Part shown: piece after piece, positions 2,329 to 38,200 of the stretch
How positions within the stretch are numbered: the stretch's first letter is position 1
How the letters are laid out: every line of letters begins with the position of its first letter
Source: Listeria ivanovii subsp. londoniensis
Lineage (GTDB): Bacteria; Bacillota; Bacilli; Lactobacillales; Listeriaceae
Assembly (NCBI RefSeq): GCF_000763495.1
Contig: NZ_CP009576.1
Coordinates: 754,001-818,000, forward strand
Length of the DNA: 64,000 bases
Direction: 5' to 3'
Made by a program: the position numbers and the translations under genes
The notes under the pieces: model-generated
Seen by the model: the letters and a program-made list of their open reading frames with translations, nothing else
Database searches by the model: none
Told to the model about the DNA's origin: nothing

Positions 2329-2418
2329 CGGAGAAACGGGGATTCGAACCCCGGCGCGGCATACACCGCCTAACAGATTTCGAGTCTGTCCCCTTCAGCC
2401 GGACTTGGGTATTTCTCC
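2329..2418 (-). tRNA. tRNA-Ser (anticodon CGA), phage integration target
   Basis: A 90-base class II tRNA on the minus strand. The acceptor stem is GGAGAAA paired with TTTCTCC plus G as discriminator. The anticodon stem ACAGA/TCTGT encloses loop CTCGAAA (anticodon CGA, reading UCG). A long variable arm and a T-arm GGGG-TTCGAAT-CCCC are present, and CCA is not encoded. The 5' half, from the anticodon arm to the 5' end, is duplicated at 38435-38465, so this copy is a hybrid: 3' half from the host, 5' half supplied by the prophage. Its upstream promoter region is therefore phage DNA. Confidence 0.95.
2388..2418. repeat. Prophage attachment site attL (31-bp core)
   Basis: 31 bases identical to 38435-38465, beginning GTCCCCTTCAG and ending GTATTTCTCC. 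The core is the 5' half of the tRNA-Ser gene, so integration restores an intact tRNA on this side. Identity breaks just outside the core on the tRNA side. On the phage side some similarity continues because an older related prophage lies next to attR. Confidence 0.9.
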
Positions 2419-2458
2419 TTGTAGTTGTATCAACGATTTGAGAGTATTTATGATTTTT

Positions 2459-2479
2459 TGACTATCATTTTGACTATCA
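2459..2479. promoter_or_regulatory. Putative integrase arm-type sites (left)
   Basis: Two direct copies of TGACTATCA at 2459-2467 and 2471-2479, a 12-bp period. The same pair with the same period is at 38290-38310 near attR, and one more copy is at 38508-38516 in the older remnant. Repeats placed at both ends of a prophage beside the core are the expected layout of arm sites for a tyrosine integrase (inference). Confidence 0.6.
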
Positions 2480-2497
2480 AATCAATTTCAACAGATT

Positions 2498-3643
2498 TTA
2501 TTTTAGCATAAAATCAGAAAAAAGAGAAGCTGTAGAATCTTTCTTTTCTTGAGTCACATGTGTATAAATATTAGACGTAGTTTGTATATCCGCATGTCCT
2601 AAACGTTCTTGTACGTCTTTTAGTGATGCGCCAGCTTCAAATAACAGTGAAGCGTGCGTGTGACGGAAGCCATGACAAGTTATTTTTTTAAATTCAGTGT
2701 GATGTTTAAAAATGGTATCTAACCATGAGTAAGTAGCGCTGGGGTTATAGTATTTACCTTCATTGTCGAATGTGATTTGTACTTTATCTAATCTCAAAAT
2801 ATGATGATTTTCACGTTGATACTTTTTCCATTTTTTTAACACATCAACTGTAGATACATCTATACTTATGTCTCGCTTACCAGCTTTTGTTTTAGTAGTA
2901 TTCACTAAAATGCGAGCATGTTCGCCACGTGAGAGAGTTTTATTTATATACAAACGTTTGTTGTTTAAATCTACATCTTTCCATGTCAGCGCTAGTGCCT
3001 CAGACTTTCTCAATCCCGTAAAAGCTAACAGATAGAAAAATGTATATTTGAAAATATCGTCTTTGACAGTATCTAAAAACGAACGTAATTCATACTTGTC
3101 ATAGAATGTAATATCTTTTTCCTCTTTTTCTATCATTTCTCCGCGCGGAATAATGACAAACGCAAACGGATCAGTATCAATTAAGTGTAATGATATTGCA
3201 TATTTAAAGACACGAGAAGTTAAATTTTTCAAACGTTTATATGATGTCGAATTTGTTTTTGACCATGCGTTTATGACTTGCTGACAGAAATGTATGTCTA
3301 TTTTATCGATAAACTTATCGCTAAAAAATGGTAATATGTGATGATTGAAGAATATTTTAGTGCGTTCTAACGTGCTTTCTTTGACTGTTTGCGTATAGAG
3401 ATCTAACCATGAAAAATACACTTCTTCAAATTTCAGCGCCTTTTTTTTGGTTTTCAATCCACCTTCCTCTAATATTTGCATTTCAATGCGCTTTAGCTCC
3501 ATTTTAGCTTCTCTCTCTGTTTTAAATCCTCGGCGAGTGGTCTGTTTTCGTTTTCCAGTCATGTTATCTATACCAGCATAAACTCGAAACATATAACGAA
3601 TTTCATTTTTTGAATTCAAATATGATTTAATACGTTTATCCAT
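2498..3643 (-). CDS. int: Phage tyrosine integrase
   Basis: 381 residues, normal for the Tn916/phage integrase family. An N-terminal arm-binding domain (residues 1-60, AP2-like) is followed by a core-binding SAM-like domain (70-165) and the catalytic domain (175-365). All key residues are present: R212 in TGLRKSEA, H324 and R327 in HGFRHTH, H350 in RLGH and nucleophile Y360 in SNIYTHV. It lies beside attL, pointing out of the phage toward the tRNA. A broken homologue lies just outside attR. Confidence 0.95.
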   Translation of the reverse strand: MDKRIKSYLNSKNEIRYMFRVYAGIDNMTGKRKQTTRRGFKTEREAKMELKRIEMQILEEGGLKTKKKALKFEEVYFSWLDLYTQTVKESTLERTKIFFNHHILPFFSDKFIDKIDIHFCQQVINAWSKTNSTSYKRLKNLTSRVFKYAISLHLIDTDPFAFVIIPRGEMIEKEEKDITFYDKYELRSFLDTVKDDIFKYTFFYLLAFTGLRKSEALALTWKDVDLNNKRLYINKTLSRGEHARILVNTTKTKAGKRDISIDVSTVDVLKKWKKYQRENHHILRLDKVQITFDNEGKYYNPSATYSWLDTIFKHHTEFKKITCHGFRHTHASLLFEAGASLKDVQERLGHADIQTTSNIYTHVTQEKKDSTASLFSDFMLK

Positions 3644-17068: not shown

Positions 17069-17494
17069 ATGACAAAACGATTAACTAAAGCGCAATTTCA
17101 ATATATAGAAGATGAGCTTAGACATTACTACGATACCAAAAAAGAATTAGAGCAGTTAAGGTTAAATGTTATAACAGGTTCAATATATCAAGAATACTCA
17201 GATGAAAACATCGGTGGTAGTTCTTCAGGAAATATTAGTAATCAAGTTGAACAAAGAGTTACATTGCTTGATATGGATGTTCAAATACAACGAATGAATA
17301 AAGTTGTCAGGGTCATTGATAAAGTGATTGCAAACTTAAACGAGAATGACAGGATGGTTATTAAGCTTCGTTACTGGTCACGTGAAAGATACACATGGGA
17401 ACATATTGGAATGAAGTCTCATATGGGAAGAGCAACAGCGATAAGACATCGAGACGTTGTAATAAAAGAAATTGGTAGGTTTCTTGGATTTTAA
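17069..17494 (+). CDS. RinA/ArpU-like late transcription regulator
   Basis: 141 residues. An N-terminal coiled-coil segment is followed by a sigma-region-4-like HTH (NDRMVIKLRYWSRERYTWE then GRATAIRHRDVVIKEIG). ArpU/RinA proteins end the early region of many Gram-positive phages and switch on late genes. The position here, last before the nuclease/RNA/terminase block, fits. The exact subfamily is not certain. Confidence 0.7.
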   Translation: MTKRLTKAQFQYIEDELRHYYDTKKELEQLRLNVITGSIYQEYSDENIGGSSSGNISNQVEQRVTLLDMDVQIQRMNKVVRVIDKVIANLNENDRMVIKLRYWSRERYTWEHIGMKSHMGRATAIRHRDVVIKEIGRFLGF

Positions 17495-17587: not shown

Positions 17588-18331
17588 ATGAATTTAGTTA
17601 GGTGTTGGGAATGCGAGCAATATATTTCGCAGGAAGCTTCCGTACATTTCAGAGATTTGTCTGGAGGTAGAAACTTATGCGTTGAATGCCAACATAAGTA
17701 TCGAAAAAAAATAGAAGAAAAGAAAAAAGAATATATTGCGCACAAAATCGAAGCAACACTTGAAAGAGCAATACATCTTATAGAAATGCAAGAACACTGT
17801 AGTATGAAAATGGATGAATACCTTGACCCATATAACACAGTAGCCCAATTTTATAGGAATGACAGTAGCAAGTTTGATTCTGCCCATGAAGTAATGGCTT
17901 GTATCGAATTGTTAAGAAGTCAGATTAAAGTAAAAACACAACAAAGAATAGGGCGCAAACGAGTAGATTTTATTTTGCCAGACATGAAGGTTGTATTAGA
18001 GATTGATGGAGGGCACCATCGTTTTAGGATTGGTAAAGATTCAGAACGAGATGTGTTTATCCTTAATACTTTGAATAAATCTGAACACGGTTGGGAAATT
18101 ATTAGAATACCAACTAGATTTATTGAACAAAATATTAGACGTCTTGTTCCTTCTATTAAAGCATTATATAAAGAACGTCAAGAACTAAGAAACAAACATA
18201 ATGGGTTCATTCCGTCTTATTACTCAAGAACAAATAAGATGTCTCACATATCAGCGATTAAAGGTGTTGCTTCAGATAATGAAATCGAAGCAATGGGACA
18301 TGAACTGTTAGACGGAACTGAGCATCTATAA
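17588..18331 (+). CDS. Zinc-ribbon PD-(D/E)XK endonuclease-like protein
   Basis: 247 residues. The N-terminus is a zinc ribbon with C6/C9 and C31/C34. A helical linker leads to a VSR/DUF559-type nuclease core: RVDF (D127), then VVLEIDGGHHR with E138 and D140, the D...ExD arrangement of PD-(D/E)XK enzymes, followed by WEIIRIP. It lies between the late regulator and the structured RNA region, upstream of the HNH/terminase genes. It could be a homing-type or packaging-associated nuclease. The TATAAT box of the RNA region overlaps its stop codon. Confidence 0.7.
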   Translation: MNLVRCWECEQYISQEASVHFRDLSGGRNLCVECQHKYRKKIEEKKKEYIAHKIEATLERAIHLIEMQEHCSMKMDEYLDPYNTVAQFYRNDSSKFDSAHEVMACIELLRSQIKVKTQQRIGRKRVDFILPDMKVVLEIDGGHHRFRIGKDSERDVFILNTLNKSEHGWEIIRIPTRFIEQNIRRLVPSIKALYKERQELRNKHNGFIPSYYSRTNKMSHISAIKGVASDNEIEAMGHELLDGTEHL

Positions 18332-18332
18332 T
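18327..18332 (+). promoter_or_regulatory. -10 box for the structured RNA region
   Basis: Perfect TATAAT overlapping the end of the nuclease gene. The -35 region (around 18304-18309, ACTGTT) is poor. The predicted start, near 18339, is just before the first hairpin of the RNA region, which supports a dedicated promoter. Confidence 0.45.
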
Positions 18333-18465
18333 CACATGATGACATAGCAGGAGGATGCTATGTTGCCTGGCAGAGGCTTTGTATCTGATCGTTGGTCTTG
18401 ATGGGAGACGCATCTCATTCCAACCTCACTAGTCCCAACAAGAGACACCTTCTTGTTCAATCTCA

Positions 18466-18595
18466 ATACTCGTGGCGGAATAGGTAGACGAAGCACAGGA
18501 TAGAACTAATGTAGCTAAGGAACGTATGTCTTAGCTTAAAACTCCTGTAAAACAAACTAATTAGTTCATGCAAGGTGCAAATCCTTGCCGAGTAT
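18466..18595 (+). ncRNA. tRNA-Leu-like domain inside the structured RNA
   Basis: A perfect 7-bp acceptor-like stem (ATACTCG at 18466-18472 with CGAGTAT at 18589-18595), a Leu-type D-arm sequence (TGGCGGAATAGGTAGACG) and a T-arm-like GCAAGG/CCTTGC hairpin with loop TGCAAAT. It is not a working tRNA: the T-stem is 6 bp, the loop has G in place of T55, no CCA follows, and the anticodon arm is replaced by ACAGGA/TCCTGT (18495/18543) around an inner AGCTAAG/CTTAGCT hairpin. A second helix GAACTAAT/ATTAGTTC (18503/18560) crosses it, giving a possible pseudoknot. Confidence 0.65.
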
Positions 18596-18808
18596 ATTAA
18601 CTGAATAGAACTTCGGACACCTCTTAGAAATGTGCCACAGCCGAGGACGTTTTATAATATCCATGCAACTGCTGTACGCAGTAAGTAGCTACCTCAGCCA
18701 AATCGGTAAGCAGTAGTTTGTTAAATGAGGGAAATAAAAACAAGTCATTGACGAATGGCACCGTAGAAGTTTAATGGTTTTATAACTACGGATTATATTA
18801 ATAATCAC

Positions 18809-18834
18809 AGCTCCGAATCATTCGGGGCTTTTTA
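18809..18834 (+). terminator. Intrinsic terminator of the structured RNA
   Basis: AGCTCCGAA pairs with TTCGGGGCT (9 bp, one T-G) around a 3-base loop and is followed by TTTTT. It lies just before the ribosome site of the HNH gene, separating the RNA from the packaging operon. Confidence 0.8.
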
Positions 18835-18851
18835 TATAGGAGTTGCATATC

Positions 18852-19226
18852 ATGAGTTACAAACCAACAGACCCATTTTATCTAACACAGAAGTGGAAAC
18901 GCAAACGCAAGAAGATACTTAGAAGAGATGAATACCTTTGTCAAGAAGCGAAGCGCTATGGTCGAACGGAGTCTGCTGAGATGGTTCATCATATCTTTAC
19001 AAAAGAAGAATACCCAGAACTTGCATTTGAAGATTGGAATTTAATTTCTTTATCAAATCGTTCGCATAATTCAATGCATAAGCGTGAATCTCATGAATTG
19101 ACCAGAGAAGGTCTGATGTGGGAAGAAAAGCGCAAAAAGGAATTCGAGGCATTTTATTCATCCCCCCTACCAAACGTTCTAAAAAAAGGCTCTGGGGATA
19201 CCGAGGGTGGGGACTTTTTCCAATAG
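18852..19226 (+). CDS. Phage HNH endonuclease
   Basis: 124 residues from ATG 18852, with AGGAG 9 bases upstream; the TTG at 18843 is too close to it. Contains MVHHIF, then EDWNLISLSNRSHNSMH, the HH...N...H pattern of HNH nucleases. HNH genes directly before the small terminase gene are a fixed feature of HK97-type phages with P27-family terminases, where the nuclease assists packaging. Confidence 0.85.
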   Translation: MSYKPTDPFYLTQKWKRKRKKILRRDEYLCQEAKRYGRTESAEMVHHIFTKEEYPELAFEDWNLISLSNRSHNSMHKRESHELTREGLMWEEKRKKEFEAFYSSPLPNVLKKGSGDTEGGDFFQ

Positions 19227-19266: not shown

Positions 19267-19641
19267 ATGGCAAAAAAGAGTAAAGTTGAAAGTATAGAAA
19301 AATATAAACCTCTCTCTGTAAAAGAAAGAGTGATCCAAGATATGAAAGGATTGGGAGTTTATAAAACGGAGTACGACAATATCATAACTATTTATTGTGA
19401 TTTATTAACTCAATACGATGATGCGCAGAAGAAATTTATTGACTCTAATTATCAATACGAAACTTCAACAGCAGCTGGCGGAACAAAGAAATCTGCTATT
19501 GTAGCAACTCTGGAAAATCTAAGAAAAGACATCATTGCTTACTCTGACCGATTGTGTTTAAACCCGCGTGCAATCGAAAACATCACAACTGAAAATAAAA
19601 AGCAATCTAGCTTATCGGATATATTGAGTGAAATGCGATGA
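19267..19641 (+). CDS. Terminase small subunit (P27 family)
   Basis: 124 residues, preceded by AGAAAGGAGG. Helical throughout with the P27-type order: [19 protein letters not shown] then a conserved ending with [11 protein letters not shown]. The subunit recognises phage DNA and feeds it to the large subunit. Its stop overlaps the terL start (ATGA). Confidence 0.85.
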
Positions 19642-21389
19642 CTGCAATAGATTTTTCAAATTACGATAGTGTGATGAATTATGTAAATGATGTTGTGAAA
19701 GGCAAAAAAATAGCGGGGAAAGAAATACAACAAGCGGCGAAAAGATTTAAAAAGGATTTGAAAAATAAAGAATACGAATTCAATCCTAAAGATGCAGAAT
19801 TTGTGATTGGGATTATTGAAAGAACTTTTGTTCATGATCAAGGGGAAAGAATTGACGGAACTCCGCTTCGAGGTAGTCCGTTTATTTTAGAGCCCTGGCA
19901 AAAATTTATTATTTATTCCTTATTGGGATTTTATATAAAGGGTACAATCATTAGACGTTTCAAAGAAGCGTTTATTTTTTTACCTCGAAAAAACGGTAAA
20001 ACTAGATTTGTTGCAGCATTGTCGTGGGCGTTAGCACTTTTAGAAAGAAAGTCGGGGTCAAAAATTTATATCGTTGGCGCTGCTTTGGAACAATCTTTAC
20101 AAAGCTTTAATTTCATTAACTTTAATATTAAAGAAATGGGAGAAGAGGATTCATTTCGTGTTTTAGATAATAACCAAGAGCATAGCATTTCTGGTGATTT
20201 TGGAGATGGTTCTTTATATATTAAAGCACTAGCTGCTAACCCAGACCGACAAGATTCCCTCAATTGCAATGTAGGAATTGCAGACGAATTACATGCGTAT
20301 AAAACTCCTAAACAGTACAACATTATAAAGGAAGCAATGAAGGCATATACAAATAAACTGATGATTGGTATCACTACGGCTGGTGATAATATGAGCTCTT
20401 TTTGTTATCAGCGCTTACAGTATTGCAAAAAGATTTTAGACGACACTGTAAAAGATGAGGCTTATTTTGTTTTTATAGCAAAAGCGGATGAAGATAAAAA
20501 AGGCGAAGTGGATTACACAAATCCAATACAACATGAAAAAGCAAATCCAAATTACGGGATTACTATCCGACCTGCTGATATGACAAATGACAGTTTACAA
20601 GCGCAAAACGATCCGCAGCAAAGAAAAGACTTTCTATCTAAATCTTTAAATATATATACTAGCGCAATGAAAGCATACTTTAATATAGATGAGTTTAAAA
20701 CTTCTGATTCAAAATATAACTGGACCTTAGAAGAATTAGCTAAACTGCCGATTAAATGGTACGGCGGTGCCGACTTGGCAAAACTTCATGATTTAACAGC
20801 AGCCGCGCTTTATGGAAGATATGTAATGAATGACGGTGTGGAAGTAGACATTGTTATCACACATGCTTTCTTTCCAGTTGTAATGGCAAATAAAAAAGCG
20901 GATGAGGACAATATACCATTATTTGGTTGGAAGGATGATGGAGTATTGACAATGACGAACACTCCGACTACCAATTTCGCGGTGATAGTCAACTGGTTTA
21001 AAGAAATGAAGAATAAAGGTTTTGACATTAAACTTGTAGGCTTTGACAAAAAATTCGGTCGTGAATTCTTTTACTTGATGAAAAAGAGCGGTATTAAAAT
21101 AGTAGACCAACCTCAATATTTCTATAAAAAATCAGAAGGATTTAGACGTATTGAAACAAAAGCAAAAGATGGACATTTTTATTATTGTCACAATCAATCA
21201 TTTGAATATTGTGTTCAAAATGTCCGAGCTATTGAAAAAACGGATGACATGATTCAATACGAAAAAGTAGATGGCGATGGTGGTTCGCAACGTATTGACT
21301 TGTTCGATGCCGCAGTATTTGGAGCTGTGCAAATGTTAGAAGATATACAAATGAGTGCAGTAGCAAGCAAATGGCTTAATTCAAATTGA
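19638..21389 (+). CDS. Terminase large subunit
   Basis: 583 residues, the usual length. Walker A PRKNGKT at 116-122, Walker B/catalytic GIADE (D214, E215) and, in the nuclease domain, [13 protein letters not shown] with D377 and D383. It packages DNA into proheads and cuts concatemers. It belongs to the HK97/phi-type terminase group that pairs with P27 small subunits and an HNH protein, both present just upstream. Confidence 0.95.
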
Positions 21390-38017: not shown

Positions 38018-38075
38018 AATTTATGAAAGACGTGATATACTTTTAATAGAGGGAGGGGAGTTTCACCCCTCAACT

Positions 38076-38177
38076 TTACTTGTCCTTGTTTTTGTCCTTC
38101 TTGCGTAATGTTATCAGCGCTACTGCAAGAGTGATAATTTCAAGGACTGTTTTTATTTCCTCTAAGATGTCTTTCAC
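38076..38177 (-). CDS. 33-residue hydrophobic/basic peptide, toxin-like
   Basis: From GTG 38177 with AAAGGAG 8 bases upstream. MKDILEEIKTVLEII then TLAVALITL and a Lys-rich tail (RKKDKNKDK). Short peptides with one membrane helix and a charged tail resemble type I toxins or holin-like toxins. It has its own strong promoter (38203-38231), which is why I keep it despite its size. A GAGGGG/CCCCTC hairpin follows at about 38053-38071. Confidence 0.5.
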   Translation of the reverse strand: MKDILEEIKTVLEIITLAVALITLRKKDKNKDK

Positions 38178-38200
38178 TTTCTCAACTCCTTTCTATATTT

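What the first reader, a model, noticed from the sequence alone, without database searches (positions are those of the whole stretch)
18327..18834. A roughly 500-nt, highly structured, gene-free transcription unit in the phage late region
Between the nuclease gene and the HNH gene there is no ORF but at least seven good helices, several perfect (8 bp at 18342-18363, 7 bp at 18437-18456, 5 bp at 18668-18682, 6 bp at 18761-18791). TATAAT at 18327 and an intrinsic terminator at 18809-18834 frame it as its own transcript starting near 18339. Phage setting, size and a tRNA-like part recall ROOL and GOLLD, two large ornate RNA classes of phages and mobile elements that assemble into RNA-only cages. 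It may be a divergent member or a new class.
Basis: partly seen in the sequence, partly recalled or inferred. Interest (0 to 1): 0.92.

Follow-up and report, generated by a model that had tools for sequence, protein, structure and literature searches.

The report
Anticodon-less tRNA-like RNA in phages
A gene-free stretch of a Listeria prophage encodes a composite RNA whose core looks like a transfer RNA with its decoding arm swapped for something else; the same core turns up in many phages of Gram-positive bacteria, including the laboratory phage SPP1, and it had no entry in the RNA family library where we looked.

Summary
The RNA locus is real, but it is not ROOL or GOLLD by model search. It is a modular phage RNA: a 5' part related to rli62/Bacilli-1, a tRNA-like cassette (18466-18595), a swappable middle, the Rfam mcrA motif (18744-18794) and a terminator (18809-18829).

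The tRNA-like cassette is the new thing: a 7-bp acceptor stem, a tRNA-Leu-type D arm and a T arm with loop UGCAAAU, but no anticodon arm; a hypervariable insert, usually closed by a helix, takes its place. A bare sequence pattern gives 173 distinct copies with 104 different acceptor strands; 148 pair 7 of 7. Rfam has no family there in the loci checked, and ARAGORN misses it in the window.

It lies before HNH/terminase genes in many phages, in tRNA arrays in others (in EFDG1 right after a tmRNA), and in SPP1 and phi3T. A sister genus of Listeria carries it as a chromosomal gene, 96.7% identical across nine loci against 60-69% in the flanks.

Most likely it is processed like a tRNA and acts in trans as a tRNA-elbow mimic with an exchangeable effector domain. 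Processing and function are inferred, not shown.

The parts
18327..18332 (+). TATAAT, candidate -10 element; start of the shared block in several homologues
   Evidence: Kept in 14 of 15 homologues (not P70) behind unrelated upstream contexts; BLAST blocks of L005, L006, L008, L009, L010, L013 and L014 start exactly at 18327. No -35 match.
18333..18465 (+). 5' module, rli62/Bacilli-1-like; helices 18342-18349/18356-18363, 18391-18395/18420-18424, 18400-18406/18413-18419, 18437-18443/18451-18457
   Evidence: rli62 RF01486 77.9 bits (cut-off 83; the match starts at 18282), Bacilli-1 24.2 bits (cut-off 55.6); PSA 100.2 and LP-101 112 bits for rli62; first helix 100% paired with 2 pairs changed on both sides, the other three have none
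18466..18595 (+). tRNA-like cassette: acceptor 18466-18472/18589-18595; D arm 18475-18491; T arm 18570-18588, loop TGCAAAT
   Evidence: In the window the outer D-stem pair is a G-A mismatch.
18503..18567 (+). helix Pv 18503-18510/18560-18567 closing the insert just before the T arm; inner hairpin 18513-18519/18530-18536
   Evidence: Family: Pv of 5 bp or more (G-U allowed) in 134 of 184 copies vs 29% of shuffles; Watson-Crick only 71 of 184 vs 5.5%. The free-energy fold of the cassette alone prefers a different, nested arrangement.
18495..18548 (+). possible pseudoknot 18495-18500/18543-18548 between linker and insert
   Evidence: 91.3% of cells paired in the Listeria homologues; across the family only modest: 45% vs 28% of shuffles have a complement of 5 bp or more
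18596..18743 (+). middle module, replaced by non-homologous sequence in relatives
   Evidence: Alignment A2
18744..18794 (+). mcrA RNA motif (RF03010): hairpin 18744-18749/18754-18759 and helix 18761-18766/18786-18791
   Evidence: 67.2 bits, cut-off 57.6; hairpin 6 of 6 pairs changed on both sides, 100% paired in 15 sequences; the second helix never varies, so it says nothing
18809..18834 (+). intrinsic terminator
   Evidence: 9-pair stem and T tail; most other homologues carry a different terminator sequence here
17069..17494 (+). late transcription regulator (context)
   Evidence: phrog_36 3e-28; DUF722 1.8e-5, below its cut-off
17588..18331 (+). DUF559-type nuclease (context)
   Evidence: PF04480 5.5e-8
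18843..19226 (+). HNH endonuclease (context)
   Evidence: phrog_119 6.3e-25; no Pfam HNH match at E<=0.1
19267..21389 (+). terminase small and large subunits (context)
   Evidence: PF05119 1.3e-14; PF03354 4.5e-24 and PF20441 4.4e-12

Best explanation
The stretch encodes a trans-acting phage RNA built from exchangeable cassettes. Its core belongs to an unnamed family of anticodon-less RNAs akin to tRNA-Leu. Shown by sequence: the tRNA body (7-bp acceptor, D arm, T arm) is kept, the anticodon arm is missing, and a hypervariable insert, in most copies closed by a helix, replaces it. Inferred: RNase P and RNase Z cut the cassette out of the longer transcript, as they would a tRNA. Inferred: the freed RNA uses its tRNA elbow to engage a tRNA-binding partner of the host (a processing or modifying enzyme, the ribosome, or a tRNA-directed defence), while the insert supplies the phage-specific activity, as decoy or adapter. 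It is probably not a translating tRNA and probably not charged in general.
For: Covariation: the pattern fixes the D arm and T loop but not the acceptor; of 173 distinct pattern-found copies (loci) 148 pair 7/7, 18 pair 6/7, 6 pair 5/7 and 1 pairs 4/7, against 3.9% at 7/7 with partners shuffled; 104 different 5' acceptor strands. On 76 aligned copies 99.3% of cells pair and 291 cells are changed on both sides against 72.5 in shuffles (these rows had been filtered for pairing). Found from the T arm alone, in loci first fetched: of 69, 57 have the D arm within 2 mismatches (25 exact), 55 pair 7/7 and 9 pair 6/7. Pv helix. tRNA-like handling: 39 of 184 copies have an ARAGORN tRNA call within 1.5 kb (5 of them with only an untyped tRNA nearest), a lower bound since some flanks are short; in EFDG1 it directly follows a tmRNA. 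Model R1 also finds hits of tRNA-Leu length (about 78-88 nt) in nearly all genomes of the phylum sample; one was checked, an annotated tRNA-Leu of EFDG1. Discrete unit: eight loci share little more than 18465-18597 with the window (L102, L127, L131, L137, L163, L166, L198, L204; their relatedness to each other was not checked). Not charged: CCA follows 1 of 184 copies but 29 of 87 neighbouring tRNAs; the discriminator is A in only 105 of 184.
Against: No transcript ends, processing or binding partner has been observed here. CCA can be added after cleavage, so lack of an encoded CCA does not exclude charging. The pseudoknot signal is weak and 50 of 184 copies lack a Pv of 5 bp at the tested place. 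In A118 the model finds no cassette, in P70 it is degraded (20 bits) and in PSA the insert is short (89 nt in all), so the composite RNA can do without a full one. The insert shows no strong common motif. R1 scores do not separate the family cleanly from tRNA-Leu: 84-nt hits reach 45.3 bits, above the P100 (42.4) and Bacchae (44.5) copies, which therefore rest also on length and, for P100, on sequence.
Confidence: 0.5

Rival explanations
1. The tRNA-like cassette is only a processing tag: RNase P and Z cut at it to give defined ends to the flanking RNAs (5' module, mcrA module), as in MALAT1/mascRNA (recalled).
For: Shared blocks begin or end at the cassette borders; the middle behind it is freely swapped; it sits in tRNA arrays.
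Against: It also exists as a chromosomal gene conserved over its whole length, insert included, and in EFDG1 without rli62 or mcrA modules around it. A pure tag would not need an insert with a covarying closing helix.
Confidence: 0.2
2. Cis element of the late operon: leader, antiterminator or packaging RNA for the HNH/terminase module.
For: Of 70 copies with 1.5 kb upstream and 3 kb downstream, 33 have a terminase or portal cluster downstream, 14 an HNH cluster downstream, 19 a late-regulator cluster upstream, all members on the same strand (clusters labelled from one representative each).
Against: 33 of the 70 have none of these clusters. Copies in EFDG1 and 8014-B2, in SPP1 between genes 9 and 11, in phi3T and on bacterial chromosomes are not before terminase genes. 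In the window a terminator separates it from HNH.
Confidence: 0.1
3. A divergent ROOL or GOLLD that forms RNA cages.
For: Size, phage setting, tRNA neighbourhood of relatives; the phage K authors compare their two lncRNAs to GOLLD/ROOL by location and abundant transcription (PMC9241854, passage), and phage K carries a piece of the 5' module inside one of them.
Against: No Rfam hit to ROOL/GOLLD at E<=10 in the window or at E<=0.5 in 12 relatives; the method detects a ROOL-like RNA in P100. Mosaic build and an overall z of -1.2 do not suggest one intricate fold.
Confidence: 0.05
4. A decaying tRNA-Leu, or a tRNA-Leu with an intron in the anticodon loop.
For: The D arm is that of tRNA-Leu (recalled; and one search lists annotated tRNA-Leu genes under D-arm matches); the model also hits RNAs of tRNA-Leu length.
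Against: Compensatory changes at 6 of 7 acceptor pairs and 4 of 6 T-arm pairs; near-invariant D arm; 117 of 131 columns invariant in the chromosomal copies; no intron family reported in the searched stretches.
Confidence: 0.05
5. A bacterial Y RNA (YrlA type) scaffold for a Ro60/Rsr protein.
For: Y RNAs mimic tRNA (recalled; also stated in PMC12282133, passages); P100 encodes a DUF2828/DUF7788 RNA-binding protein, and the authors of PMC12282133 liken a CKA15 protein (CKA15_055) to Rsr; that the two are counterparts was not checked.
Against: TROVE found in 0 of 15 records, own genome included; YrlA does not match the cassette in the stretches searched; a weak YrlA hit in EFDG1 lies elsewhere in the record (28.4 bits, cut-off 69).
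Confidence: 0.04

Closest known systems
tRNA-Leu (class II tRNA, RF00005)
   Same: D-arm sequence, 7-bp acceptor, T arm position; model R1 also finds RNAs of tRNA-Leu length
   Different: No anticodon arm; insert of 45-110 nt in 165 of 184 copies; T loop UGCAAAU in place of UUCRAAU (recalled consensus); sixth T-stem pair; CCA encoded in 1 of 184
tmRNA (RF00023)
   Same: tRNA-like ends around a non-tRNA domain; found directly after one in EFDG1
   Different: No tmRNA model hit at the cassette; far shorter; a tag reading frame was not searched for, but the insert is too variable for a shared one
mcrA RNA (RF03010) and rli62/rliG/Bacilli-1 (RF01486, RF02415, RF02931)
   Same: These Rfam entries are the 3' and 5' modules of this composite RNA or of its Listeria phage relatives
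   Different: In the alignments seen they do not cover the tRNA-like cassette; they are separate entries in Rfam
Bacterial Y RNA YrlA (RF02553)
   Same: tRNA mimic without translation role (recalled)
   Different: No model hit at the cassette, no TROVE protein found in 15 records
ROOL / GOLLD
   Same: Large phage RNAs near tRNA genes (PMC12286853, passages)
   Different: No model match; mosaic build

Membership tests
ROOL (RF03087) | Match to the Rfam covariance model | tested here: not met
   No hit at E<=10; the same search finds it in P100, E=2e-16, 86 bits, itself under the cut-off of 99.1
ROOL (RF03087) | RNA-only eight-chain cage | not testable with these tools
   Feature as read in PMC12286853 passages
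GOLLD | Match to the Rfam covariance model | tested here: not met
   No hit at E<=10
tRNA (RF00005) | Acceptor, D and T arms | tested here: met
tRNA (RF00005) | Anticodon arm; recognised by ARAGORN/Rfam | tested here: not met
   Window; other loci:
tmRNA (RF00023) | Model match | tested here: not met
tmRNA (RF00023) | Tag reading frame | not tested
   No search for a frame in the insert was made
YrlA Y RNA (RF02553) | Model match | tested here: not met
   Window; relatives
YrlA Y RNA (RF02553) | Partner Ro60/TROVE protein in the genome | tested here: not met
   0 of 15 records
mcrA RNA (RF03010) | Score over the gathering cut-off | tested here: met
   67.2 vs 57.6 bits
rli62 (RF01486) | Score over the gathering cut-off | tested here: inconclusive
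   Window 77.9 vs 83 bits; PSA and LP-101 relatives exceed it
unnamed tRNA-like family (model R1) | Match to the model built here | tested here: met
   Window 75.7 bits, but the window is one of the rows the model was built from; SPP1 (81.4) and phi3T (73.2) are not

The most novel reading that the evidence does not exclude
A new, widespread class of phage-encoded anticodon-less tRNAs: a conserved tRNA body processed by host tRNA enzymes, carrying a fast-evolving plug-in domain where the anticodon should be. Phages would use it to engage or deceive tRNA-binding machinery, possibly tRNA-directed defence, and one bacterial lineage has taken it over as a chromosomal gene.
Probability: 0.45. Interest if true: 0.92.

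Novelty: new variant of a known kind. Interest (0 to 1): 0.8.

Why it matters
tRNA-like RNAs without a decoding arm are rare and usually have striking functions (recalled). One that recurs across phages of Bacillota, that Rfam and a standard tRNA finder did not report in the loci checked, and that has become a conserved chromosomal gene in a Listeria sister genus, suggests an overlooked point of contact between phages and host tRNA machinery. Its presence in SPP1 and phi3T, phages of Bacillus subtilis, makes it directly testable. It also suggests that separately catalogued Rfam entries (mcrA, rli62/rliG, Bacilli-1, DUF3800-I) are swappable parts of long phage RNAs.

Tried and rejected
ROOL/GOLLD/tmRNA membership: no model match. 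Exceptional folding energy: not found. Y RNA with a Ro protein: TROVE absent in 15 of 15 records. Strict link to packaging: 33 of 70 well-flanked copies have no terminase, portal, HNH or late-regulator cluster. mcrA as a widespread marker: 1 of 398 class genomes, our own (strict filters). Uniform pseudoknot: only weakly supported. Linking the abundant CKA15 ncRNA (PMC12282133) to this family: not shown; the ROOL-like hit in P100, about 1 kb upstream of gp165, is a likelier counterpart, also unchecked.

Caveats. The GTDB scan gave 72 stretches, mostly Bacillota, but also MAGs labelled Alphaproteobacteria, Bacteroidales, Neomarinimicrobiota and Methanoperedens. Of 261 distinct D-arm hits in the loci then held, 203 had the loop TGCAAAT, some had canonical tRNA loops, and for 29 no acceptor/T arm was found by the script (the set is biased by how loci were fetched). 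Alignment A1 used 75 of 147 length-filtered copies (of 184 non-redundant ones) plus the window, all pre-filtered for pairing. On A2 the number of further pair types (45) is not above shuffles (46.4; 415 of 500 as high), and terminator helix 13 is 41.7% paired because relatives carry another terminator. In one search, 369 of 398 genomes match R1, but most listed hits have the length of an ordinary tRNA-Leu; 8 genomes show a listed hit of 110 nt or more, and the list is truncated. Three of those (L384, L385, L423) have a TTC-type T loop. Gene clusters are named from one representative each; one search prints 37 of 70, of which 4 have only unlabelled, HNH or regulator clusters, leaving 33. Promoter-like and terminator-like sites of the chromosomal gene are read by eye; the scan reported no terminator and only one promoter-like site, downstream of the gene. 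In L320 Rfam gives only matches below cut-off, best STnc390 25.8 bits (cut-off 50) over the 3' end and terminator. For phage K the text and table of PMC9241854 give the two lncRNA names to opposite loci, so which one has the most reads is unclear; by its text it is the other one. Literature statements rest on 10 searches of one open-access library, judged by titles and starts of abstracts, and on passages or single sections of PMC12286853, PMC9241854, PMC12282133, PMC8040213, PMC6786865 and PMC3556495; no paper was read whole. Weinberg 2017 (mcrA, Bacilli-1) was not held. mascRNA, the role of azlCD, and tRNA-Leu and T-loop consensus sequences are recalled.

Full report
The locus. The window is G000:C1:754001-818000, a Listeria genome by content (rli48 at 38029-38178; Listeria phage relatives). 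The stretch 18332-18842 has no + strand ORF of 50 aa or more. It lies between a late regulator (phrog_36) plus a DUF559 nuclease and the genes for HNH, TerS and TerL.

Named pieces. Rfam gives mcrA RNA at 18744-18794, 67.2 bits over a cut-off of 57.6. With a loose threshold an rli62-like 5' part appears (77.9 bits, cut-off 83), with weak Bacilli-1; ROOL, GOLLD and tmRNA do not appear. In 12 relatives rli62 passes its cut-off in PSA and LP-101, rliG in A118, LP-LmcIH1-8 and vB_LmoS_188, and mcrA in PSA, LP-101, LP-LmcIH1-8 and P70. rliG and rli62 are reported as sRNAs of prophage A118 (PMC3556495, passage), rliG as induced during intracellular growth and enriched in secreted RNA (PMC6786865, passages). 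So the A118 relative is transcribed; the window RNA itself was not observed.

Module order. PSA, LP-101 and P70 keep the order 5' module, tRNA-like cassette, middle, mcrA (P70). An alignment of 15 relatives shows TATAAT in 14, unrelated upstream contexts, and several non-homologous middles. On it the mcrA hairpin is paired in 100% of cells with 6 of 6 pairs changed on both sides, and the 8-bp helix at 18342 is 100% paired with 2 such pairs. The CCGTAG/CTACGG helix never varies and so says nothing. Overall 18 pairs are changed on both sides against 9.9 in shuffles, but further pair types (45) do not exceed shuffles (46.4). A piece of the 5' module also lies in a transcribed lncRNA of Staphylococcus phage K, 13595-14229 minus, whose 3' part resembles DUF3800-I (43.4 bits, cut-off 44.2); S2G3 shows the same pair (45.5 bits for DUF3800-I). 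These long phage RNAs therefore look like mosaics.

The tRNA-like cassette. Inspection gave an acceptor 18466-18472/18589-18595, a tRNA-Leu D arm and a T arm. The acceptor is free to vary under this pattern: of 173 distinct copies 148 pair 7/7, 18 pair 6/7, 6 pair 5/7 and 1 pairs 4/7, with 104 different 5' strands; shuffled partners give 7/7 in 3.9%. Starting from the T arm alone, in loci first fetched, 57 of 69 have the D arm within 2 mismatches and 25 match exactly. Some D-arm hits are ordinary tRNAs and some have other T loops.

Anatomy. In 184 non-redundant copies the median length is 118. The T stem gains a sixth pair (G-C in 170), CAT or TAT precedes it in 163, and the discriminator is A in 105. 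The insert has no strong shared motif, but a helix ending just before the T arm has 5 bp or more in 134 of 184 copies against 29% of shuffles (Watson-Crick only: 71 of 184 against 5.5%). A pseudoknot between linker and insert is possible, with modest support (45% vs 28% of shuffles, 115 of 165 copies tested). On 76 aligned copies the named structure is paired in 99.3% of cells, with 291 doubly changed cells against 72.5, bearing in mind that the rows were filtered for pairing.

Where it lives. Of 184 copies, 39 have an ARAGORN tRNA call within 1.5 kb. Among named phages it has tRNA or tmRNA genes close by in EFDG1 (directly after a tmRNA), phiLM33_01, 8014-B2, phiJL-1, PWc and LpeD, and a weaker, longer model hit lies in the tRNA array of P100. 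In Bacchae such a hit lies beside the 5' module and tRNA genes. Of 70 copies with 1.5 kb upstream and 3 kb downstream, 33 have a terminase or portal cluster downstream, 14 HNH and 19 a late regulator upstream; 33 have none. CCA follows 1 of 184 copies but 29 of 87 neighbouring tRNAs. Model R1 scores SPP1 81.4 bits (between genes 9 and 11), the window 75.7, phi3T 73.2, L320 73.0, PSA 58.3 and P70 20.0; A118 and phage K have no hit.

A chromosomal copy. In one sister genus of the family 9 of 9 genomes carry a hit; in the own genus 6 of 25, in another genus 2 of 2 (E<=1e-7). Nine loci compared: element 96.7% mean identity, 117 of 131 columns invariant; 63.6% and 69.0% upstream, 61.8% and 59.5% downstream. 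By eye there is a promoter-like site and a terminator; the scan did not report them. Rfam gives no match over a cut-off there. This copy, conserved over insert and body, argues for a free RNA with its own role.

Mechanism. Shown: the conserved tRNA body, loss of the anticodon arm, hypervariable insert, position in tRNA arrays in some phages, and existence as a discrete cassette whose borders match the acceptor ends. Inferred: processing by RNase P and Z; trans action through the tRNA elbow; the insert as phage-specific effector. Charging is doubtful: the discriminator is not constant and CCA is rarely encoded.

Novelty. Rfam 15 has no family at the cassette in the window (E<=10) or in any of 17 further loci searched at the curated cut-offs. 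The paper searches listed nothing that describes it by title or start of abstract; that library lacks most subscription papers. I file it as a new variant of a known kind (tRNA mimics), with a real chance that it is a class of its own.

Noticed in passing
L401:2573-3124 (-), Listeria phage P100: ROOL-like RNA, 86 bits (cut-off 99.1), E=2e-16, about 1 kb upstream of gp165. It may be the counterpart of the very abundant ncRNA reported for the related phage CKA15 (26236-26727); not checked.
   Followed up: partly
L401:71-1591 (-), P100 gp165: DUF2828/DUF7788 protein, phrog_850 RNA-binding protein, near the tRNA array; candidate Ro-like partner of phage RNAs although the TROVE model does not match.
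   Followed up: partly
L390:31-131 (-), Enterococcus phage EFDG1: Weak YrlA-type Y RNA hit (28.4 bits, cut-off 69) inside the tRNA array, apart from the tRNA-like cassette.
   Followed up: no
L416:1316-1360, SPP1: Just after the tRNA-like RNA lies a second short element with acceptor-like ends and a canonical T arm (loop TTCAATT) but little room for D and anticodon arms: a possible mini tRNA-like RNA, read by eye.
   Followed up: no
L361, L065, L330, L236, L289, L247 (sequences): Some inserts or D-arm hits contain a second, canonical T arm (TTCGATT or similar), as if two tRNA-like elements were nested; read by eye.
   Followed up: no
L373:1133-1540 (-), Staphylococcus phage K: A phage K lncRNA combines a piece of the rli62-like 5' module with a DUF3800-I-like 3' part (43.4 bits, cut-off 44.2); S2G3 (L141) shows the same pair.
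   Followed up: partly
L320:5111-6336: The chromosomal tRNA-Leu-like gene lies just downstream of azlCD, a branched-chain amino acid transport pair; coincidence or link to leucine unknown.
   Followed up: no
window 2329-3643: tRNA-Ser beside a 381-aa minus-strand ORF (not identified here): by position the likely attachment end of the prophage.
   Followed up: no
   Followed up: partly
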